A DNA stretch of 64,000 bases from Devosia rhodophyticola (GTDB lineage Bacteria; Pseudomonadota; Alphaproteobacteria; Rhizobiales; Devosiaceae). The first letter of the stretch is position 1; the number at the start of each line of letters is the position of its first letter. The DNA lies in the NCBI RefSeq assembly GCF_028816475.1, contig NZ_CP118247.1, positions 2,720,001 through 2,784,000 of the forward strand, given 5' to 3'. Below the pieces are notes generated by a model. It ran no database searches, was not told where the DNA came from, and saw only the letters and a program-made list of their open reading frames with translations. A program made the position numbers and the translations under genes. Of the stretch, positions 5,537 to 15,961 are shown piece by piece.

Positions 5537-6310
5537 TCAAAGCTGAAGCTCGATCCAGGCGGGCGCGTGGTCACTCGCGTCTGCTTGGCCACGGACTTGC
5601 CTGTCGATGCCACCGGTTTTTAGCGCCTTTGCCAGATCGCGGCTCAATAAGAGGTGGTCGAGTCGCAGGCCGGCATTTCGCGGCCAACGGTTTCGCATGT
5701 AATCCCAGAAGGTATAGAGCGTTTCGTCTGGATAGAGGGCGCGCAGGGCGTCGGTCCAGCCCTGCGCGAGCAATTGTTCGAATTGAGCACGGGCGGCCGG
5801 CTGGACCAGCGCATTGTCGCGGTATGAGGTCGTGAGGTAAATGTCGCGGGGCTGGGGGACGATGTTGTAGTCGCCCGCCAGAACCACCGGCAGGCCGGTG
5901 TCGAAAAGTTCGGAGGCATGGTTAGTGAGGCGATCGGCCCAGGCCAGCTTATAGGCATATTTGGGGCCTGGTTGCGGATTGCCGTTGGGTGCGTAAAGTG
6001 AGGCGATCAGGATGCCGTTGACGGCCGCCTCGATGTAGCGCGCCTGATGATCATCATCGTTGCCGGGCAGGTTGGTGCGCGTGAGAACTGGCTCGCTGCC
6101 GCGCGCCAGAATGGCCACGCCGTTCCAGGACGATTCGCCCTGCCAGACGGCGGCGTAACCCGCGTCTGCGATGGCGGTGGCGGGAAACTGACGCTGGCTT
6201 GCCTTGAGCTCCTGCAAACAGACAATGTCGGGCGCGGCGTCGGCAAGCCAGGCCATCAGATTGGGCAGGCGGCGGTTGATGCCGTTGATATTGTAGGTGG
6301 CGATTCTCAC
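5537..6310 (-). CDS. exodeoxyribonuclease III family AP endonuclease
   Basis: EEP-superfamily nuclease of about 257 residues with the canonical ordered motifs: RIATYNINGI, CLQELKAS (catalytic Glu), LYAPNG, LAGDYNIVP (Asp/Asn pair) and the terminal ASDHAPAW (Asp-His). The protein cleaves 5' of abasic sites and removes 3' blocking groups. GTG 6310 is chosen because it makes a four-base GTGA overlap with the upstream hydrolase; the longer frame adds seven uncharacteristic residues. It is the last gene of the five-gene leftward cluster starting with ligD and ku, which fits an end-processing role in break repair. XthA-type rather than ExoA-type naming is not decided. Confidence 0.9.
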   Translation of the reverse strand: MRIATYNINGINRRLPNLMAWLADAAPDIVCLQELKASQRQFPATAIADAGYAAVWQGESSWNGVAILARGSEPVLTRTNLPGNDDDHQARYIEAAVNGILIASLYAPNGNPQPGPKYAYKLAWADRLTNHASELFDTGLPVVLAGDYNIVPQPRDIYLTTSYRDNALVQPAARAQFEQLLAQGWTDALRALYPDETLYTFWDYMRNRWPRNAGLRLDHLLLSRDLAKALKTGGIDRQVRGQADASDHAPAWIELQL

Positions 6311-6951
6311 GGAGCGATGCGCCGGACCCATTCATCAAGGCTTTGCGCGATGGTTTGAAGATGATCGGCGGTTGAAAATCCCGAAATGGTTTTGCGCGGC
6401 TTGAGGTCGTGGTCGCCATCCTCGAGCAGTTCGACTTCAATGGTTGGGGCGAGATCGTAGCTGGCGATTTCTTCGGGCGAGCCGAACGGGTCACGGGTTC
6501 CCTGATAAATCATGGTTGGGGTTTTGTGCGTGCGCAGGTGTGCGGTGCGCAATTGTTGTGGCCTTTCTGGTGGGTGAAAGGGGTAGCCGAGGCAAACCAG
6601 TCCGGTGATGCGACCAGCAGCGAGAAGGTCGTCTGCGACCATGCTGGCGACGCGTCCACCCATAGACTTGCCGCCGATAATCAACGGTCCGTTGGTCGGG
6701 CCGAGATCGTCGACGGCGGCGATGAATTCGGGCATTACCCTGTCGGCGCGTGGTGGTGGTTTGCGGCCGGCAACGGTGCGTCGGCTGGCCATGTAAGCGA
6801 ACTCGAAGCGGGCGACGCGAAAATTCTGTTTGGCCAGCGCATCGGCGGTCGCAGTCATGGACGCGGAGTCCATCGGGGCGCCTGCGCCATGAGCCAGCAG
6901 CACCGTTACACGCGCATCGTGGGGGCCATTAAACAGGAAATGGGTTGCCAT
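6307..6951 (-). CDS. alpha/beta hydrolase of the KANL3/Tex30 family
   Basis: A 214-residue alpha/beta hydrolase. It has the oxyanion region LLAHGAGAPMDS, the nucleophile elbow GGKSMGGR (Ser about residue 102) and late acid/histidine residues in IYQGTRDPFGS and EDGDHDLKPR. This pattern, including the HGAGAPMDS start, matches the KANL3/Tex30 hydrolases, whose substrate is unknown. ATG 6951 overlaps the upstream stop by one base (TAATG); four bases overlap downstream. It is embedded in the Ku/LigD cluster, so a link to DNA repair is possible but purely contextual. Confidence 0.85.
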   Translation of the reverse strand: MATHFLFNGPHDARVTVLLAHGAGAPMDSASMTATADALAKQNFRVARFEFAYMASRRTVAGRKPPPRADRVMPEFIAAVDDLGPTNGPLIIGGKSMGGRVASMVADDLLAAGRITGLVCLGYPFHPPERPQQLRTAHLRTHKTPTMIYQGTRDPFGSPEEIASYDLAPTIEVELLEDGDHDLKPRKTISGFSTADHLQTIAQSLDEWVRRIAP

Positions 6952-8030
6952 TAGCCCGTGGTCCCGTCGCGGGTGGTTTTTTCGGCAAGACTTATGCCAG
7001 CGCGAGCGCGGCGTGCCCAGTCCGAGCTTTGATCGAGTTGCAGGTAGCTCCGCCACCAACCGCTGGCGCTGTTGAGGTTCCCGGCGTCATATTCGAGTGC
7101 GCCCAGATTATAAACGGCATCGGCAAAGGTGGGATCAAGTGTTGCGGCCTTGATCAAATGCTGTCGGGCGGCGTCAATGCGGCCCATATCTCGGAATAAA
7201 CCGCCATAGTTGAACCAGGCTTCGATGAACAGGGGATCGCGCTTAAGGGCGGTCGCATAGGCCAACGCTGCTCCCTCGATATCATCAAGTTGACGCAGAC
7301 AGTTGCCCAGATTGAAGGGGGCGGTGGCGTCGCTGGTGTCGATGGCGGAACAGTGTTGGTAGAGCGAGGCCGCTTCGGCATAAAGTTCGGCGGCTTCAGC
7401 GTTTTCTGCCAGTCCGAAATAGTCCTCTGCTTCGTCGTCGGTTTCGGGCAGGTCCAATAGCCGTTGCCCGCCGAGCTCGGCCAATGAATGGTTGTCACTG
7501 GTCAGTATCTTGTCGGCCCCGGCATGAAGGGTGAGCGCGGTCAATGAGCCGACCGGGCCGATCTGATGAACGGACCGAGCGATGGCACTCCAATTGGCGC
7601 CCGAGGCAATAAGCCCGGCGTATTTTTTGGCCAGGATGACATCACGGAAGGAAAAAGGTTCGGCGTGGTGCTCGAATGCATCAAGGAGGGTCAAAAGATC
7701 AAGAACAGGGGCGCTGAGCCGGGATTGATCAAGTAGTGCCTGGCGGTCGATGTTGGCGGGCGGCGTTTCGGGCAGCGTGCCGAGGGTCTTCAGAAATCCG
7801 TTTTCGCTGAGCAATCTGGCCCCATTGGCTCGTGCCGCTTCCAGCCGCGTTTCCAACTCGGTTTCGCTCAGGCGCGTCAGGAGCGTTCGGCCAACGACGA
7901 TTGTAGTGGTGCCACGGGTAAAGTTGCGATGCAGGCGGCCGCCAAGTGCGGTGACGCGTTTGGCCGCGAGGCGCAGCGGAAAGGCGCTCAATGCCCCGAT
8001 GACGCCAAAACTTTGCCCGCGCAAATGCAT
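6951..8030 (-). CDS. BRCT - MerR-like - TPR multidomain protein encoded next to Ku
   Basis: A 359-residue protein with three modules. Residues 1-85 read as a BRCT domain: a GQSFGVIGALS strand, LAAKRVTALGGRL helix, TTTIVVG strand, then ARANGARLLSENGFLKTLG, as in NAD-dependent ligases. Residues 115-190 resemble the MerR-type helix-turn-helix found before TPRs (FSFRDVILAKKYAGLIASG, then a segment ending in RLLDL). Residues 205-345 hold at least four TPR units (for example APFNLGNCLRQL, AWFNYGGLFRDMGR, AVYNLGALEYDAGN). It starts six bases after the ku stop and overlaps the hydrolase gene. A scaffold or accessory role in end joining is inferred from context. Confidence 0.82.
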   Translation of the reverse strand: MHLRGQSFGVIGALSAFPLRLAAKRVTALGGRLHRNFTRGTTTIVVGRTLLTRLSETELETRLEAARANGARLLSENGFLKTLGTLPETPPANIDRQALLDQSRLSAPVLDLLTLLDAFEHHAEPFSFRDVILAKKYAGLIASGANWSAIARSVHQIGPVGSLTALTLHAGADKILTSDNHSLAELGGQRLLDLPETDDEAEDYFGLAENAEAAELYAEAASLYQHCSAIDTSDATAPFNLGNCLRQLDDIEGAALAYATALKRDPLFIEAWFNYGGLFRDMGRIDAARQHLIKAATLDPTFADAVYNLGALEYDAGNLNSASGWWRSYLQLDQSSDWARRARAGISLAEKTTRDGTTG

Positions 8031-8036
8031 GGGACG

Positions 8037-8948
8037 TCAGGCTTTCTTCTTGGAGGCCGCCTTGGGCGATGCGGCCTTGCTGGCTTCGAGAGCGGCCTTG
8101 AGTGATGCCTTGGCCGGCGAAGTTTTGGCGGGCGTGGCCTTCGCAGGTGCCTTTGCCTTGCTTTTGGCGGCAGGTTTCGCATCGCCCAGACTTGCCTTGA
8201 GCGCGTCCATCAGATTGATGACGTTGCCGCGTTCGGGAGCGGCGGCGATGATCGGATTATGGCCTTTGAGCTTTTCGCGGATCATGGACATGAGTGCTTG
8301 CTCATACCGGTCCTCATAATCCTTGGGATTGAAGGGTTTTACCTTCTGTTCGATGAGTTTTTCGGCGAGTTCGAGCATTTCGGGATCGGGCTTGCCGACC
8401 GGAATGTTGTCAAAATATTCGGTGGTACCGCGCACTTCATTGGGGTTGCGCAAAGTTGTTACGAACATGCCGTTTTCGCGGGCACCAATAGTAATAACGC
8501 GCTCGCGGCTGGTCATGACCAGTCGGGCAACGGCGACCTTGCCGCTTTTGCGCAAGGCCTCGCGCAGAACAACGAACGTCTCTTCGGCCATGGCGCCGTC
8601 AGGGGCCAGATAGTAGGGCGTATCCTGATAGAGAACATCGACTTCGCTCTCGTCGACGAACGCCTCAATGTTCATCGTGTGGTTGGATTCGATGCGTACT
8701 GCATCCAGATCCTCGTTTTCGATGATAATGTATTGTTTGGGTTCGTACTCATAGCCACGCACCAGATCAGAGCGCTCTACCAGCCCCAGTTCAGGATCGA
8801 CCGGCTTCATGTTGATGCGGTTGTGGGTTTCCTTGTGCAGCTGATTGAAGCTGATGCGCTCCGACGCGCTGGTTGCGGGAAACAGTTTAACTGGACAACT
8901 TACAAGGCTCAGCCTCAGTTGACCCTTCCAACTCGCTCGTGGCGCCAA
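8037..8948 (-). CDS. ku: Ku homodimeric DNA end-binding protein (non-homologous end joining)
   Basis: A 303-residue bacterial Ku. The N-terminal strand WKGQLRLSLVSCPVKLFPAT and the motifs LVRGYEYEPKQYIII, DTPYYLAPDG and NPKDYEDRYEQAL are family hallmarks. The last 45 residues are a lysine/alanine-rich tail ending KKKA, the kind of basic extension that binds DNA beyond the ring. TTG 8948 is the start, with AGGAGG correctly spaced upstream. Ku rings thread onto double-strand ends and recruit LigD, encoded 39 bases upstream on the same strand. Confidence 0.96.
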   Translation of the reverse strand: MAPRASWKGQLRLSLVSCPVKLFPATSASERISFNQLHKETHNRINMKPVDPELGLVERSDLVRGYEYEPKQYIIIENEDLDAVRIESNHTMNIEAFVDESEVDVLYQDTPYYLAPDGAMAEETFVVLREALRKSGKVAVARLVMTSRERVITIGARENGMFVTTLRNPNEVRGTTEYFDNIPVGKPDPEMLELAEKLIEQKVKPFNPKDYEDRYEQALMSMIREKLKGHNPIIAAAPERGNVINLMDALKASLGDAKPAAKSKAKAPAKATPAKTSPAKASLKAALEASKAASPKAASKKKA

Positions 8949-8987
8949 GGCAGCCTCCTGTACGCGAACTCTGCTGAATCATTGGGT

Positions 8988-11420
8988 CTATCCTGGCGTC
9001 AAATCCCGTTCGGACTCATTAATGTCGGCCCAGGGGTCGCCAGAAGTGGTTAATAAACCCGGAAGTGTAGAGTAATTCAGGTCCGATGGAGAGTCTATGG
9101 ACTCCAGATCGCGCCAATCGAGCGGCGTTGAAGCGGGCAGGTGGGGGCGGGCGCGCAAGGAATAGGCCGCTACGGCAGTGGCGCTGCGCGCATTGCGATG
9201 ATAATCAATGAAAATCCGGTTCTTGCGATTGTCGGCGCCCATTGTGGTGACGAAAGTGTCGCGGCCCGTGGTGGCGAGCTTTGTCGCGATGGCGGCGCAG
9301 GCAGAGTGGGTCTGCTTCCAACCCAGTTTTTGGGTAACGGGGACGACAATGTGGACGCCCTTGCCGCCAGAGGTTTTGACAAAAGGCACAAAGCCCATGG
9401 CCTCAAGACCAGCGCGCAGGTGGACGGCGGCGTTGGCTACGTCGCGCCAGGCGATGCCTTCGCCGGGATCAAGATCAAAAATTACGCGGTCGGGTTTGTC
9501 GAGATGGCTCTTATGGGTGCCCCAGGCGTGGAATTCCACGACGCCGAACTGGGCCAGTGCCAAATAGCCCTTGGCGTCCTCAATTGAAATATAGGTCTGC
9601 TTTTCGCCTTCCGAATTCTGGGTGGGAAAAGAGGCAAGGGTTGCGGGCATGCCGGTGAATGGGTGACGCTGGAAGAAACAGTCCTGCGGTTTGCCGGTGG
9701 GGCAACGAAACAGCGACACCGGGCGGCCAAACAAATGGGGCAGCATGAAGTCACCTACGGCAGCGTAATAGACGGCGATTTCGAGCTTGGTGGGGCCGGA
9801 CTTTCCGAACAGGCGCCGGGTGGGATTGGTTACCCAGATGCCGGCCAGATCGGCATCCGAGACGATGCGTTGGCGCGGCGCCGTTGGTGCCGTTGTAAGT
9901 TCGGTCTCGCGCAGACCCTTGAACACGGCGTGACGAAGCATGCCATCGCTGGTGATTGCGGCGTATTGAATGCGCGCCTTGAGCATTGGCTTGACCGGTA
10001 GGATCTCTCTTGGGGCGCCCTCAATCGGATCCTCGATGCGCATCGTGCCCAGCCGATCTGCGAGCGACTTTATAGTGGCGGCATCAAAACCGGTCCCTAC
10101 CTTGCCGCGGTAGATCAAGTCATCACCTACCCATTCGGCCATGGCGAGCGCCCCGATGCCGCCATTGGCCGGACTATCACTATAGCCAGCGATAACGAAA
10201 TCGCCGGTTTTGAGCGCCTTGATTTTGAGCCAGCTCTTGGAGCGCCCATCGGTGTGTTTGCTGTCGGCTCTCTTGGAGACAATGCCCTCCAAACCCAGAT
10301 CGGAGGCATGGTCGAACAGCGGCGTGCCGTCGCCCTCGACGTGATCGCTGAACTGGATGGCCGAGCGAGTATCAATGTGGCCAGATAGGAGTTGGGCAAG
10401 CAGGAGCTTGCGCTTGACCAACGGCACGTTGCGAAGGTCCCAGCCATCAAGATGCAGCAGGTCGAATGCGTAAAACACCAGCTGATTGCCTGCCCCGTTC
10501 GACAGCGCGTCCTGCAATTTTCCGAAGCGGCTGATGCCTTTATCGTCCAGCACGACGATTTCGCCATCTATGACCGCTTCGCGACAATTGAGCTTGGCAA
10601 AGGCCGCCGGGAGGCCGCCGTAACGCTTGGTCCAATCGAGCCCGCCCCGCGTGATAAGGCGGGCGGTGTCGCCTTCAAGAAACGCCAAAGTCCGATAGCC
10701 GTCGAATTTGATCTCGTGCAGCCAATTGCCCTGTCTGGGCGGGGCGTCTGCGGGGGAAGCCAATTGCATCTTGAGAGAAGTCGGGAACGGCTTTTTGACT
10801 GCCCCGACACGTTTGCCCGGCTGGGGTTTGGCTTGCTTTTTGGACGGAGTGGGCGTGGCGACAAGATCTTCGATCAGGCGGCCTGATTTAACGCTTTCGG
10901 GGCGGTCGAGCAGAATATCTCCCTCGATATCCATCGCTTGATCGCGCTCCTTGAAAAGGAGCCAGTTGCTCTTTTCGCCCTCGTTCGGTTTTCCCTTGAG
11001 CCGCGCCAGCATCCAGCCGCCGCGCAGCTTTTCGCCGACCAGTCGGAATTTGAACGCACCATTTTCGAGGTCAATGGCCGGGTCACCCATTGGCGCCCAG
11101 GTGCCGGTGTCCCATACGATCATCGGACCGCCACCATATTCCCCCGCGGGGATTACGCCTTCGAAATCGAGATAATCGACGGGGTGGTCTTCGGTGGCGG
11201 CGGCGAAGCGTTTGTCGGCGGGATTGAGGGACGGGCCTTTTGGCACCGCCCAGCTCTTGAGGACGCCGCCGAGTTCCAGCCTTAAATCATAATGGTCGGC
11301 GGTGGCGGAATGCTTGTGGACGACGAAGCGATTGCTGCCGCCGTCCGACGTTCCGGTGGGCTCCGTCGTTTTGGCAAAGTTGCGTTTGCCCCGGTATTTT
11401 TCAAGTTTGCCATCGGCCAT
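8988..11420 (-). CDS. ligD: multifunctional ATP-dependent DNA ligase LigD (phosphoesterase-ligase-polymerase)
   Basis: An 810-residue LigD with all three domains. The 3'-phosphoesterase (about residues 25-185) has FVVHKHSATADHYDLRLE and VIPAGEYGGG. The ATP-dependent ligase (about 215-520) has the adenylation motif EIKFDGYR with Lys about 238, then DGEIVV and EGIVSKR. The primase/polymerase domain (about 530-800) has FDLDPGEGIAW with metal-binding aspartates, TSGGKGVHIVVP and DYHRNARSATAVAAYS. The order phosphoesterase-ligase-polymerase is the Pseudomonas/rhizobial arrangement, unlike mycobacteria. It heads the repair cluster and works with the adjacent Ku to trim, fill and seal breaks. Confidence 0.96.
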   Translation of the reverse strand: MADGKLEKYRGKRNFAKTTEPTGTSDGGSNRFVVHKHSATADHYDLRLELGGVLKSWAVPKGPSLNPADKRFAAATEDHPVDYLDFEGVIPAGEYGGGPMIVWDTGTWAPMGDPAIDLENGAFKFRLVGEKLRGGWMLARLKGKPNEGEKSNWLLFKERDQAMDIEGDILLDRPESVKSGRLIEDLVATPTPSKKQAKPQPGKRVGAVKKPFPTSLKMQLASPADAPPRQGNWLHEIKFDGYRTLAFLEGDTARLITRGGLDWTKRYGGLPAAFAKLNCREAVIDGEIVVLDDKGISRFGKLQDALSNGAGNQLVFYAFDLLHLDGWDLRNVPLVKRKLLLAQLLSGHIDTRSAIQFSDHVEGDGTPLFDHASDLGLEGIVSKRADSKHTDGRSKSWLKIKALKTGDFVIAGYSDSPANGGIGALAMAEWVGDDLIYRGKVGTGFDAATIKSLADRLGTMRIEDPIEGAPREILPVKPMLKARIQYAAITSDGMLRHAVFKGLRETELTTAPTAPRQRIVSDADLAGIWVTNPTRRLFGKSGPTKLEIAVYYAAVGDFMLPHLFGRPVSLFRCPTGKPQDCFFQRHPFTGMPATLASFPTQNSEGEKQTYISIEDAKGYLALAQFGVVEFHAWGTHKSHLDKPDRVIFDLDPGEGIAWRDVANAAVHLRAGLEAMGFVPFVKTSGGKGVHIVVPVTQKLGWKQTHSACAAIATKLATTGRDTFVTTMGADNRKNRIFIDYHRNARSATAVAAYSLRARPHLPASTPLDWRDLESIDSPSDLNYSTLPGLLTTSGDPWADINESERDLTPG

Positions 11421-11481
11421 GGAAGAAATCTAACCCGGATTTGTCAGAACGCCAGTGGGGAAATCGTGTGCATGGCGGGCG

Positions 11482-11797
11482 GAGCATTTTGTCAATTTTC
11501 ACAAGCAGGACATGAATGACGTCAGCATTGGATGGACAAACAGGTCCATTTGAATGTCGGCCAGTTCCTTTTGGGCGTGGCTGCGCTGGGCATTGATGCG
11601 GCCCGATGGAAGGTATCGAGGTCAAGATTCTGGACGAAGAATTTGGCCTGCGGGAAAAGGGTCTTTCAAGCCTTGTGGTGGTTCCCATCGGCTATCGCGA
11701 TGCAGCCGCCGATTTCAATGCAGCCCTGCCGAAATCGCGTCTGACCTATGCCGATAGCGACGCCACGAAACCGACAGCCAGAATCGCCAATGGATAG
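11482..11797 (+). pseudogene. NfsB-like nitroreductase, 3' remnant
   Basis: Only the C-terminal third of an oxygen-insensitive NAD(P)H nitroreductase survives, spread over three frames. EHFVNFHKQDMND starts at 11482, [23 protein letters not shown] at about 11529, and [19 protein letters not shown] from 11606, ending PKSRLTY and a stop at 11797. These blocks are collinear with NfsB. At least two frameshifts separate them and no N-terminal FMN-binding half is visible; ligD occupies that sequence. This is decayed DNA rather than a read error. Confidence 0.72.
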
Positions 11798-12274: not shown

Positions 12275-13378
12275 CTATTTCAGATAGGCATCGCGCCAGT
12301 TTTCCGAGGCGCCGATTGCCAGGCCTGTTGCGTCGAACAGATGCACAAAATCTTCATGGAAGCCTATACTCAGCGTATCACCCGATTGCGTACCGCGAAT
12401 GCCGGTCAGGGCTGCGGTGAAGGGTTCTCCAGATTTCAGCGCCGTGTGGATGATGGTCTGCGATCCCAGCACCTCGGTAGTCTCGACCTGAACCTCCAAC
12501 GGTCCATCGCCGGCATGGCTATGCTCAGGCCGGATCCCCAGCGTAACCGGACTGCCGTCCGCAAGCGCGATCTGACGCCCCGGTAGTGGAATTTTGGTGC
12601 CGTCGGCAAGCGTCACGGCGAGCCTGTTATCAACCCGCTGGACTGTGCCGTTCAGCATGTTCATTGGCGGCGCGCCAAGAAATTTGGCGACGAAGGCATT
12701 CTGCGGCCTGGCATAGAGTTCGACGGGCGAACCAACCTGCTCGACCTGTCCCTCACTGAGCACCACAATCGTATCGGCCATGGTCATGGCCTCCACTTGA
12801 TCGTGTGTCACATAGATCATCGTCGATCCGAGCCGCTTGTGCAGACTGATGAGTTCGCCGCGCATCGTCACCCGGAGTTCCGCATCGAGATTGCTCAGCG
12901 GTTCGTCGAACAGGAAAGCCCTGGGCTCCTTGACGATTGCCCGACCGATGGCGACGCGCTGGCTCTGCCCGCCGGAAAGCTGGTTTGTCCGTCGTGCCAA
13001 CAAATGTTCGATCTGGAGAATATTGGCGGCCTTGGCCACCCGTGCCGCGATCTCGTCCTTGGGTAATCGCTGGTTCTCCAGGCCAAACCGCAAATTTTCG
13101 GCCACGCTCATATGCGGGTAGAGCGCATAGGACTGAAAAACCATGGCCATACCGCGCGCCGAAGGCAATAAATGGTCGCAGCGCTGGCCGTCAATGTGTA
13201 CCTCGCCTCCGCTTACCTCTTCGAGCCCCGCCATCATGCGCAGCAGCGTAGATTTTCCACAGCCGGAGGGACCAACGAAGACGGTGAACGAGCCCTCATG
13301 AATGGCGAGATTGATGCCATGGATCACCTCCAGGCCCTGGAAGCTCTTGGTGACCGACTTGAGTTCGATTTCGGCCAT
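12275..13378 (-). CDS. carbohydrate ABC transporter ATP-binding protein (UgpC/MsmK type)
   Basis: A 367-residue sugar-type ABC ATPase: Walker A GPSGCGKST (about residues 37-45), Q-loop VFQSYALYPHM, signature LSGGQSQRVAIGRA, Walker B FLFDEPLSNLDAELR and switch VTHDQVEA. The C-terminal 120 residues form the MalK-like OB/TOBE regulatory domain (LGIRPEH, VEVLGSQTIIHTAL region). It energises the two permeases and solute-binding protein encoded upstream. The start overlaps the stop of the glycosidase gene (TGATG), so it is the last gene of the LacI-controlled operon. It may also serve other sugar importers lacking an ATPase. Confidence 0.93.
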   Translation of the reverse strand: MAEIELKSVTKSFQGLEVIHGINLAIHEGSFTVFVGPSGCGKSTLLRMMAGLEEVSGGEVHIDGQRCDHLLPSARGMAMVFQSYALYPHMSVAENLRFGLENQRLPKDEIAARVAKAANILQIEHLLARRTNQLSGGQSQRVAIGRAIVKEPRAFLFDEPLSNLDAELRVTMRGELISLHKRLGSTMIYVTHDQVEAMTMADTIVVLSEGQVEQVGSPVELYARPQNAFVAKFLGAPPMNMLNGTVQRVDNRLAVTLADGTKIPLPGRQIALADGSPVTLGIRPEHSHAGDGPLEVQVETTEVLGSQTIIHTALKSGEPFTAALTGIRGTQSGDTLSIGFHEDFVHLFDATGLAIGASENWRDAYLK

Positions 13379-15961
13379 CAGGACACCTCGAATGCGATGC
13401 TGTCACCGGCCTTGAGAGCAATGACATCGGCATGGCTTCGGCCATCGACGATGATCTCATTGGCAGCAAGGGTGCCGCCATCGACCGACAAATTGATGGC
13501 GTCGCCAACCTTGGTCAATGTGCCAAATCCCGTGCCTGCTGACCAGAACAGGCTGTAGTCGCCGTCCGCTTTGGGTGCAAAGCTCAAGCGACCCGCCACG
13601 AAGTCTGCGGAAAGTCCCGAATACGCATTTACCAACTGCCAAGCGGACATTGAGCGGGCATAGTAGGAGCCGCATTCGATATTGTTCCAAGGGTTGCGGC
13701 GGGCGCCATCATAACGGTCGCGGGCGGCACGGACGATATCCAGTCCCTCCTCGACAAGACCCTGCATGATCATGTGCGAAGCCGACATATATTCGACACC
13801 CGTCCATACCTCCTCTGCATAGGGGGCGGCCACCATCGGCTGACGGATGCCCGCTGGATAGGTGGCGATCAATAGACCACCTTCGCCTTCATAGGCATAA
13901 TTGCGGCAGGGGTTGAAATGATTGGTCAGCGTCGTTCGGAAATTATTGCCATGAACAGATTTGAGTGCGGTCTTTACCTTGCTGGCATCAAGAAACCCGC
14001 CAAGTCCGGCAACTTCGGCATGCCATTGTCCTAGAATCTGGTCTGATATGCAGCCCTCGCCCATCTGATATTTGAGTTCGGAAAATTCATCCGACCAATA
14101 GGTCTCCATGATGCCGTCGGCCAGAACCCCGGCGTTGCGGCCCACATCGAATGGGGTCAGCACGGATCTGTCGGACAGGTCGATCTTCTGGATGAACCAG
14201 CTTCCATTGAACAGTTCACTATTGATAAAGTCGGCACCGGCCTTGCCCATGCGGTCGGTCTTCTCGGCCAGCGCATCGTCACCCATTGCCCTGGCCATCT
14301 CGGCGGTGGCCAGCAAGGCAGCCACATACATCGAATTGAGCCATGAATTGGGTTCGAAAAGCTCCATGTCGAGCGTCTGATGCTGGCGGCCGGAGAGAAT
14401 GCCGGTCTGATCGGGGTCCCAGCGATCCTGGTTCTCCGGGCTCCAGGCATATTCAATGGCGCGCTTGAGTTGTGGCCAGTAGCGGCCGAGCCAGGCGCTG
14501 TCACCCGAGAGTTTCCAGTCGCGATAGGTCTTGATGATGGCACCGAAATGCCCGTCGGCGCAGGGACCGATGACGTCGAATCCGGAGCCAAGCGGTAATT
14601 TTTGTCGGAACGTCAGCCCGCCACTGGGCAGCATATTATAGGTGAGTTCGGTCTCGCGCAAAGTCCGCTCGATCGCGGGAAAAAGATGCGGAAGGGCTTG
14701 CTGGTAGTTCCAGACATGGGTACACGACCCCTCGCATGACCCGTCATGTGTATGCTGTCCCTCCCAGGCCCACAATTGACCCTGTTCGAGCCGGATCACC
14801 GTTGCGGTCCGAAGCAGGGCGAGCGTTGCACTGGCCGCATACTTGATTTCGGCGGGCAGGGTGGTGCCAAAAAAGCTGTCGCGGAACGCAACAGTGGCCT
14901 CAGTCAGCGTGTCCCAGCGGGTTAGCGCATCGGTGGCACAGGTCAGCGAGTCCGACCATTGCGTGGAATAATAATTGGTCCAGCTCGGCGTCGCCCGATC
15001 GGGGATTTCGCCATCGGGCTTGGGCCGGAACGCCCAGTATATGTCACCCTTGGGAAAGCTCCAGGAGATGACAAAGCGCACCGTCTTTCGCCCGCCAGCC
15101 GGCACGGTGATGCGCGCGCCAAGCGTGGCGTGTTCGGGTTGCTTACTCATATGCTTGCTGGCGCGCGGCTGGTCATAGTGCCGTTGTGGCAACCTGCCAG
15201 CGCGCGCGAATTCTTTCCAGAATACCGCCAGATCGTCGAACCACTGGCCGCGGAAATGATGGTCGATATGATCGACGTCATCCGCGTCGGTGGCAATGGT
15301 AAGGTCGCCACGCTGCGTTTCGGGCAGATCATTATCGGTCGAGGTGAGATGCAGTGAACTGATGCCGCCCTCCTGCCGGAACGTGTGGCGTCCGCTATTG
15401 GAGCCGTCATTGCCCAACGTTCCCGCCAGCGTATAGGTAAGCTCGTCGGCGGTGTCGTTGACCACCTCGAACTGGAACATGCCAACTGGCATGGACGAGA
15501 TCCCGGTCATTGTGCGGAATAAACGGCGACAATGCCGTCATTCGTACCCCGCCTGGAAACTGGCTATCTGAAAATACCAGGTCGGCGGTGGGAAAGCGGC
15601 CGTAGAAATCGACCTTGTCGAAATGGGGTACCCCTGCCAGCGTCTGTCGGTTTGCGCCATGGCCAAAACCATCGAACATCTTGCGCATGCCTGGCGCGCC
15701 CGTCGGGTTGAGATCATAGGGACCATTGAGCACCCGGGCGTCGACAAGTTCACCTTTCTTCTCTGCCTTAATGGCGAAGTGTGAATAGCCATTATAATCC
15801 TGCAATGCTGGCCGGTTGCGGATGGACCAGTCGATCAGCCTGCCGCTGCCCGAGATCGAAAACCCGCCTGAACCAATACCGCCGAGAGGAAAGGCGAGGT
15901 ATTTGGTGCGTTCGCCCGAATAGTGAAACGTGTCATCAACGGCGCGTAGATCATCCCACAT
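13378..15961 (-). pseudogene. GH116 / GBA2-type (non-lysosomal glucosylceramidase-like) glycosidase, frameshifted
   Basis: Two overlapping frames encode one protein of about 860 residues. 15961 to about 15498 gives the N-terminal beta domain (FPLGGIGSGGFSISGSGRL, ALSPFIPHNDRD). About 15496 to 13378 gives the rest of that domain (SSMPVGMFQFEVVNDTADE) and the alpha/alpha barrel, with CTHVWNYQQALPHLFP, FEPNSWLNSMYVAAL, GCISDQILGQW and AYEGEGGLL. These match GH116, retaining enzymes on beta-glucosides, xylosides or glucosylceramide. One extra base in GGGATCTCG near 15496-15500 breaks the frame between NDRD and SSMP. It sits between the permeases and ATPase, so it is probably intracellular, acting on the imported glycoside. 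A real mutation and a read error are both possible. Confidence 0.85.

What the first reader, a model, noticed from the sequence alone, without database searches (positions are those of the whole stretch)
5537..11420. Five-gene NHEJ cluster with a BRCT-MerR-TPR protein beside Ku and LigD
Genes ligD, ku, a BRCT/MerR-like/TPR protein, a KANL3/Tex30-type hydrolase and an exonuclease III run in one direction, with spacings of 39, 6, -1 and -4 bases. BRCT domains bind phosphopeptides or DNA and occur in eukaryotic end-joining factors (XRCC4 partners, ligase IV). A bacterial BRCT protein translationally linked to Ku could be an undescribed end-joining scaffold, with TPRs for partner binding and exonuclease III for end trimming.
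Basis: partly seen in the sequence, partly recalled or inferred. Interest (0 to 1): 0.72.

Follow-up and report, generated by a model that had tools for sequence, protein, structure and literature searches.

The report
BRCT-TPR partner gene of bacterial Ku
Many alphaproteobacteria that rejoin broken DNA with the protein Ku carry, right after the Ku gene, a gene for an apparently undescribed three-part protein that probably grips Ku's tail and DNA, which suggests that bacterial end joining can have a dedicated third component.

Summary
In detail: ligD, ku, a BRCT/MerR-like/TPR gene, a hydrolase gene and an exonuclease III gene run in one direction, spaced 39, 6, -1 and -4 nt. The 359-aa protein is modelled confidently (pLDDT 92.6): an N-terminal BRCT domain nearest to those of RFC1 and LigA and without the phosphoserine-pocket Ser/Thr, a MerR-like winged helix, and TPRs. 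The gene follows ku: in 66 of 66 loci (64 distinct proteins, down to 23% identity) ku is the next gene match upstream on the same strand. In the class sample 13 of 55 Ku-bearing and 0 of 330 Ku-less genomes have it. LigD's place varies; hydrolase and exonuclease were found only in part of the family. A new correlate: the motif [KR]PxAxS in Ku's disordered tail, in 50 of 53 linked and 3 of 92 unlinked Ku, including a hold-out of 15/15 against 2/35. The lineages are few, so phylogenetically independent support is thin. Best reading: a Ku-tail-docking, DNA-binding accessory factor of a subtype of bacterial NHEJ. Nothing was tested at the bench. No paper found describes it, but key Sinorhizobium NHEJ papers were not held.

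The parts
8988..11420 (-). ligD: DNA ligase D, order PE - ligase - polymerase; the only NHEJ-ligase-domain match in this genome
8037..8948 (-). ku: bacterial Ku, TTG start; the only Ku match in this genome
8160..8177 (-). codons of KPAAKS, the [KR]PxAxS motif at the start of Ku's Lys/Ala/Pro-rich tail; candidate docking site
6951..8030 (-). BRCT - MerR-like - TPR protein, 359 aa, directly downstream of ku (gap 6 nt)
7776..8030 (-). BRCT domain, residues 1-85, RFC1/LigA-like, net charge +8
7551..7748 (-). MerR-like winged helix, residues about 95-160; one homologue (L108) lacks it
6954..7445 (-). TPR domain, residues 196-359, acidic, with an asparagine series N240/N274/N308
6307..6951 (-). alpha/beta hydrolase (Abhydrolase_11, PF20408), overlaps the BRCT gene by 1 nt; found in part of the family
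5537..6310 (-). exonuclease III family gene, GTG start, overlaps the hydrolase gene by 4 nt; one of three above cut-off in the genome; found in part of the family

Best explanation
The 6951-8030 product is a dedicated accessory factor of a subtype of alphaproteobacterial NHEJ. Shown by sequence: it is a BRCT - MerR-like - TPR protein, co-inherited with and placed right behind one kind of Ku, whose tail usually carries a [KR]PxAxS motif. Inferred: the acidic TPR domain docks on that basic Ku-tail motif, the positively charged RFC1/LigA-type BRCT grips DNA at or near the end (perhaps the 5'-phosphate side), and the MerR-like module is a structural or protein-binding spacer. The protein would add a second DNA grip beside the Ku ring, stabilising synapsis or positioning LigD. 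In part of the family the same operon adds exonuclease III, which could remove 3'-blocked ends such as those left by Ku's AP-lyase activity, and a hydrolase of unknown role.
For: Linkage: 66 of 66 loci (64 distinct over their first 300 residues) have Ku as the next match upstream on the same strand, median gap 12 nt, 52 of 66 within 50 nt, largest 605 nt; two more phylum-search loci agree. Class sample: 13 of 55 Ku+ and 0 of 330 Ku- genomes, counting matches at E <= 1e-9; family: 14 of 30 and 0 of 31, counting full-length matches. Ku tree: 24 of 24 Ku of one clade (support 100/99) are linked and six more linked Ku lie elsewhere; 5 label changes against 25.2 in shuffles. In genomes G348, G358 and G529 one Ku is linked and another is not. 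BRCT: family profile against all PDB sequences gives RFC1 E 4e-7, LigA best 3e-6; Foldseek's best hit is RFC1's BRCT, best VIA Z 8.5; net charge +4 to +11 in all 37 rows; the 15 weak off-family genome hits of the N-terminal profile are 10 LigA, 4 RNase_T exonucleases and 1 BRCT-only frame. TPR: N240/N274/N308 in 36/36, 36/37, 34/37 rows; net negative over residues 196-345 in 37 of 37 rows. Ku-tail motif: discovery 35 of 38 linked, 1 of 57 unlinked; hold-out 15 of 15 and 2 of 35. RFC1's isolated BRCT prefers 5'-phosphate DNA ends (PMC9293009, passages); LigA without its BRCT joins double-strand breaks less well (PMC10386641, passages); B. subtilis Ku has AP-lyase activity, which leaves blocked 3' ends (PMC4245934, passages).
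Against: No binding or repair result exists here. The motif's independent contrasts are few: 3 supported pairs, 2 concordant, 0 discordant, 1 not differing (with the traits swapped 5 pairs, about 1.8, 0 and 3.2), which cannot reach significance. Three linked Ku (L106, L107, L108) lack the motif and three unlinked Ku carry it. Ku tails are basic in linked and unlinked Ku alike (median +9 in both). TPR asparagines and acids partly reflect the general TPR consensus, and over residues 196-359 one of 36 rows is +2. In M. tuberculosis Ku the extended C-terminus binds LigD (PMC9638933, passages), so the motif could serve LigD. In intact RFC the BRCT binds DNA with another face and the 5' phosphate has no major role (PMC9293009, same passages); one review says LigA's BRCT does not contact DNA directly (PMC5052709, passages). 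42 of 55 Ku+ class genomes lack the gene, so it is not needed for NHEJ in general. VIA rows within 1 Z (LigA, PARP4, TopBP1) are ties with RFC1.
Confidence: 0.55

Rival explanations
1. It is a regulator of the NHEJ operon: the MerR-like domain binds a promoter and the TPR/BRCT parts sense damage or a partner.
For: MerR-like winged helix by fold (GlnR-DNA complex 7tea, Z 6.6, 69 residues aligned) and a sub-threshold MerR_1 match in one homologue (L102); the gene lies in the operon it would control.
Against: The MerR-like module has a median net charge of -1, no long dimerisation helix follows it in the models, and a homologue without it (L108) keeps the Ku linkage. A regulator does not explain the Ku-tail motif.
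Confidence: 0.12
2. It is a scaffold that reads phosphorylated partners through its BRCT, as several eukaryotic BRCT proteins do.
For: The BRCT fold is well supported; the structural aligner places TopBP1, PARP4 and BRCA1 BRCTs within 1 to 1.5 Z of the best RFC1 row; the Ku motif contains a serine.
Against: The Ser/Thr of the phosphoserine pocket is replaced in 35 of 36 rows; the sequence profile finds RFC1 and LigA BRCTs, with XRCC1 only at E 0.78.
Confidence: 0.1
3. The protein works mainly with LigD or with the end-processing enzymes, recruiting exonuclease III and hydrolase, and the Ku-tail motif is a LigD site inherited with a Ku lineage.
For: LigD is found in 47 of 66 loci, many of them with flanks of only 1.5 kb; exonuclease III in 34 of 66; Ku's extended tail binds LigD in M. 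tuberculosis (PMC9638933, passages).
Against: LigD order and strand vary (Ku-BRCT-LigD in L102, L104, L116; opposite strand in L106, L107; no match in 10.5 kb at L105). Exonuclease III was not found in the 13 distant loci held with longer flanks (L098-L109, L116). Unlinked Ku, most of them beside a LigD, nearly always lack the motif.
Confidence: 0.15
4. Passive linkage: the gene does something unrelated and has travelled with ku by operon inheritance.
For: Operons can persist without functional coupling; most linked Ku of the 87-Ku tree (24 of 30) fall in one clade.
Against: Linkage survives to 23% identity and across a Ku tree that needs five label changes. The strong matches of the class and phylum samples (13 and 10 genomes, own genome included in each) all have Ku beside them; the weak ones without Ku are other BRCT proteins.
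Confidence: 0.08

Closest known systems
Two-component bacterial NHEJ (Ku + LigD)
   Same: Has Ku and a three-domain LigD in one operon.
   Different: Adds a conserved BRCT-MerR-TPR protein and a Ku-tail motif that goes with it; bacterial NHEJ is described as two-component in PMC12784962 (passages).
RFC1 BRCT domain (2ebu, 2k6g, 2k7f, 7u1a)
   Same: Closest by sequence profile (E 4e-7) and first by Foldseek; basic; Gly12 kept.
   Different: The residue before the Gly is V, I or L in 34 of 36 rows where RFC1 has Thr; joined to a MerR-like and a TPR domain rather than a clamp loader.
LigA (NAD+ DNA ligase) BRCT domain
   Same: Next-best profile matches (9vse, 2owo, 5tt5, 1l7b); 10 of the profile's 15 weak off-family genome hits are LigA.
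   Different: Stands in a separate protein without ligase domains.
MerR-family regulators (GlnR, 7tea)
   Same: Winged-helix fold of residues 88-157.
   Different: Near-neutral, no dimerisation coiled coil in the model, below the Pfam cut-off, missing in one homologue.
Eukaryotic NHEJ BRCT factors (ligase IV, Pol lambda, Pol mu, TdT)
   Same: A BRCT protein acting, by inference, beside Ku.
   Different: RFC1/LigA-type BRCT without the Ser/Thr-Gly pocket; no shared other domain; an analogy only.

Membership tests
BRCT domain superfamily | beta-alpha-beta-beta-alpha-beta-alpha fold | tested here: met
   E7-11 H19-28 E32-35 E43-46 H56-68 E72-75 H76-82 in both models; most of Foldseek's first 50 rows are BRCT entries
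BRCT domain superfamily | profile match above Pfam's cut-off | tested here: inconclusive
   window 14.9 of 21.3 bits, not met; homologue L108 21.5 bits, met; 9 of 37 members at E <= 0.05; family profile against PDB sequences E 4e-7
[quoted passage not shown]
   position 11 is Ser/Thr in 1 of 36 rows; Gly12 in 36 of 36
Phosphopeptide-binding BRCT | Thr/Ser-X-Lys at the start of alpha2 (same passages) | tested here: inconclusive
   no fixed triplet seen; basic residue at 62 in 27 of 36 rows
RFC1/LigA-type BRCT | nearest relatives by sequence are RFC1 and LigA BRCTs | tested here: met
RFC1/LigA-type BRCT | binds 5'-phosphorylated double-stranded DNA ends (shown for RFC1) | not testable with these tools
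   net charge +4 to +11 is compatible
MerR transcription regulators | winged-helix DNA-binding fold | tested here: inconclusive
   7tea Z 6.6, rmsd 3.0, 69 aligned, the only MerR row of 50; Pfam MerR_1 below cut-off in L102
MerR transcription regulators | dimerisation helix after the winged helix (recalled) | tested here: not met
   strands 167-185, then TPRs, follow in the models
TPR proteins | tandem 34-residue helical pairs | tested here: met
   several TPR families above cut-off; consensus TPR structures Z about 19-21
Bacterial Ku/LigD NHEJ | Ku and LigD with PE, ligase and Pol domains | tested here: met
Bacterial Ku/LigD NHEJ | active end joining in this organism | not testable with these tools
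   no experiment
Anti-phage defence systems (PADLOC) | match to a catalogued system protein | tested here: not met
   only a weak TPR-protein match for the BRCT protein (17 bits, E 5e-4), none for the other four at E <= 0.01

The most novel reading that the evidence does not exclude
A subtype of alphaproteobacterial NHEJ is a three-component machine: Ku carries a short docking motif ([KR]PxAxS) in its disordered tail that is bound by the TPR domain of a dedicated BRCT-MerR-TPR protein, whose RFC1-like BRCT holds the DNA end, making it a bacterial analogue of the eukaryotic end-joining scaffolds.
Probability: 0.38. Interest if true: 0.9.

Novelty: new variant of a known kind. Interest (0 to 1): 0.74.

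Why it matters
Bacterial NHEJ is described as Ku plus LigD, and whether additional factors take part in synapsis is called a gap in a 2026 paper (PMC12784962, passages). A protein that, in the samples searched, was not found without Ku, sits beside it in every locus checked and goes with a motif in Ku's tail is a concrete candidate for such a factor. The cluster is on pSymB of Sinorhizobium meliloti 1021, a genetically tractable plant symbiont, so the question is directly testable. It would also give a BRCT protein a role in prokaryotic end joining.

Tried and rejected
A Ku-BRCT fusion: locus L041 has a 694-aa open frame, but the Ku and BRCT reading frames differ and the frame is open by chance; the coordinates show the same for L106. 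Rejected.

General stress (EcfG-type) promoter before ligD: the recalled pattern GGAAC-N15-18-CGTT occurs 4 times in the window, none near this operon, and 4 or more occur in 19 of 100 shuffles. Promoter and terminator scans gave no more than shuffles.

Stronger charge of the Ku tail as a correlate: rejected, median +9 in both groups (p 0.43; 38 linked, 54 unlinked); tails are longer in linked Ku (44 against 28 residues), which relatedness may explain.

Whole-model fold search: TPR matches fill the list, so residues 1-195 were modelled and searched alone. MerR structures other than 7tea are not among the 50 rows shown there; that is no evidence against the fold.

Are the family profile's weak hits hidden Ku-free members? 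No: of 15 (4 class, 11 phylum), 10 are LigA, 4 are RNase_T exonucleases (3 with a Pfam BRCT match at E <= 0.01) and 1 is a 105-aa BRCT-only frame. A sixteenth, G414, is a family member cut off by a contig end behind Ku (L117).

Defence-system reading: no catalogue match of note. Viral contigs and the phage collection were not searched.

Literature: ten searches ran; judging by their listings, which were capped, none returned a paper on this protein. Seen as passages: PMC7719229, PMC9293009, PMC10386641, PMC4245934, PMC11936186, PMC12784962, PMC3102665, PMC9638933, PMC10932983, PMC9226535, PMC5052709, PMC10345425; PMC8656161 had no hit for the terms asked. Not held: Kobayashi 2008 and Dupuy 2019; not looked up: Dupuy 2017, Bertrand 2019, McGovern 2016, Aravind and Koonin 2001.


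Full report
WHAT IS THERE. The window lies in a 3.47-Mb alphaproteobacterial genome; the named genomes with the closest copies of this gene are Devosia and Pelagibacterium species. On the minus strand, ligD (8988-11420), ku (8037-8948), the BRCT/TPR gene (6951-8030), a hydrolase gene (6307-6951) and an exonuclease III gene (5537-6310) follow each other with spacings of 39, 6, -1 and -4 nt. LigD, Ku, the hydrolase family and exonuclease III are confirmed by curated profiles. The genome has one Ku match, one NHEJ-ligase match, one copy of this protein and three exonuclease III-family genes above cut-off.

DOMAINS. AlphaFold2 on a 37-row alignment gives mean pLDDT 92.6 (pTM 0.55, so the relative placement of domains is uncertain), and residues 1-195 alone give 89.7 and pTM 0.84. 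Residues 1-85 have the BRCT order of strands and helices. A profile of 36 N-termini finds RFC1's BRCT (E 4e-7) and several LigA BRCTs (best 3e-6) among all PDB sequences, with XRCC1 at 0.78; aminopeptidase P rows (about 1e-3, residues 71-183), taken as chance, also appear. Foldseek ranks RFC1's BRCT first (E 5e-5); the structural aligner gives RFC1 entries Z 7.2-8.5, but LigA (7.9), PARP4 (7.6) and TopBP1 (7.5) are ties, so the subclass rests on sequence. The N-terminal profile's 15 weak off-family hits in whole genomes are 10 LigA, 4 RNase_T exonucleases and one BRCT-only frame, 14 of 15 with a Pfam BRCT match, an independent sign that the domain is a BRCT. Residue 11, where phosphopeptide BRCTs have Ser/Thr, is Ser/Thr in 1 of 36 rows, while Gly12 is invariant. 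The domain is basic in all 37 rows (+4 to +11). Residues 88-157 match the MerR-family GlnR-DNA complex (Z 6.6, 69 aligned); median charge is -1, no dimerisation helix follows, and homologue L108 lacks the module. Residues 196-359 are TPRs (Z about 19-21 to consensus TPR proteins), net negative over residues 196-345 in all 37 rows (-1 to -17; over 196-359 one of 36 rows is +2), with Asn at 240, 274 and 308 in 36/36, 36/37 and 34/37 rows. Part of that pattern is generic TPR consensus.

LINKAGE TO KU. Of these, 66 loci were checked for neighbours in one script. In all 66 the Ku match is on the same strand upstream; median gap 12 nt, 52 with a gap of 50 nt or less, largest 605 nt (L012 and L020, the same protein); in L108 the two frames overlap by about 158 nt. 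Two pairs are the same protein over the first 300 residues, leaving 64, and one is the window itself. L117, cut by a contig end just behind Ku, was left out; two loci seen only in the phylum search (L085, L086) also have Ku directly upstream. The orders around G465 and G358 added no new locus. In the class sample 13 of 55 Ku-bearing and 0 of 330 Ku-less genomes have the gene (matches at E <= 1e-9; Fisher p 3e-12); in the family sample 14 of 30 and 0 of 31 (full-length matches; p 6e-6). These p values ignore relatedness. LigD is less constant: LigD-Ku-BRCT in most loci with long flanks, Ku-BRCT-LigD in L102, L104 and L116, opposite strand in L106 and L107, no match in 10.5 kb at L105. Exonuclease III was found in 34 of 66 loci, all among L001-L040, and a hydrolase match in 39, three of them on the opposite strand; many loci hold flanks of only 1.5 kb, so these are lower bounds, but none of the 13 distant loci with longer flanks (L098-L109, L116) has an exonuclease III match. 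In Sinorhizobium medicae the same five genes are annotated, this one only as 'tetratricopeptide repeat protein'.

KU PHYLOGENY. In a tree of 87 Ku (30 linked, L117 counted as linked), 24 Ku form one clade (100/99) whose members are all linked; six more linked Ku lie elsewhere. The label needs 5 changes, against 25.2 when shuffled. Genomes G348, G358 and G529 hold a linked and an unlinked Ku.

KU-TAIL MOTIF. Reading the tails suggested a motif, [KR]PxAxS, at the start of the variable extended tail. In the set in which it was seen it occurs in 31 of 32 Ku of the linked clade, 4 of 6 linked Ku outside it and 1 of 57 unlinked Ku; shuffled tails predict about 1.3, 0.1 and 0.7. I then fixed the pattern and the expected outcome in a note and tested new sequences: 15 of 15 linked Ku from G529's order, and 2 of 35 unlinked Ku from family genomes, several of which also carry a linked Ku. 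The 15 come from one order that also contains a discovery sequence (L105), so they show conservation rather than independent gains. Together: 50 of 53 linked, 3 of 92 unlinked. On a core-only Ku tree, for which three of the 145 rows were dropped for short core matches (L108 among them), the counts are 50 of 52 and 3 of 90; only 3 supported independent pairs exist, 2 concordant, 0 discordant and 1 not differing, too few for significance. L106 and L107, two of the three linked Ku without the motif, sit beside proteins with Gln instead of Asn308, an anecdote in line with docking; against it, L104 has the motif but not the Asn, and L108 lacks the motif but keeps the Asn.

MECHANISM. The simplest reading is a Ku accessory factor: TPR to the Ku tail, BRCT to DNA. 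[quoted passage not shown] LigA without its BRCT joins double-strand breaks less well (PMC10386641, passages), although a review holds that this BRCT does not contact DNA directly (PMC5052709, passages); and Ku's tail recruits LigD in M. tuberculosis (PMC9638933, passages). None of it was measured for this protein. The exonuclease III could clean 3' ends left by Ku's AP lyase (activity shown for B. subtilis Ku, PMC4245934, passages); this step is inference. The hydrolase has no assigned role.

NOVELTY. None of the papers found in the searches named under Tried and rejected describes a BRCT protein in bacterial NHEJ; a 2026 paper calls the involvement of additional factors an open gap. The S. 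meliloti NHEJ papers most likely to mention the gene are not held, so earlier description cannot be ruled out. I file it as a new variant of a known kind.

Noticed in passing
window 11420-11760: Remnant of a nitroreductase-like gene on the + strand, split over frames, just upstream of ligD (family name recalled, not searched).
   Followed up: no
L100:5267-7420 (-): One open frame matches LigD residues 5-439 and then Ku residues 34-265, directly upstream of the BRCT gene: a possible natural LigD-Ku fusion or an assembly effect.
   Followed up: no
L108:1484-2143 (+): A 220-aa homologue with BRCT and TPR but no MerR-like module, still beside Ku; its BRCT passes Pfam's cut-off.
   Followed up: partly
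L145 (G529 second Ku): An unlinked Ku with RPRAAS in its tail in a genome whose other Ku is linked; both might share one BRCT protein.
   Followed up: no
window 13378-15961: Two overlapping ORFs in different frames (15407-15961 and 13378-15510) look like one long gene split by a frameshift.
   Followed up: no
G000:C1:3282350-3283111 and 1677112-1677900: Two further exonuclease III-family genes above cut-off besides the one in the cluster.
   Followed up: no
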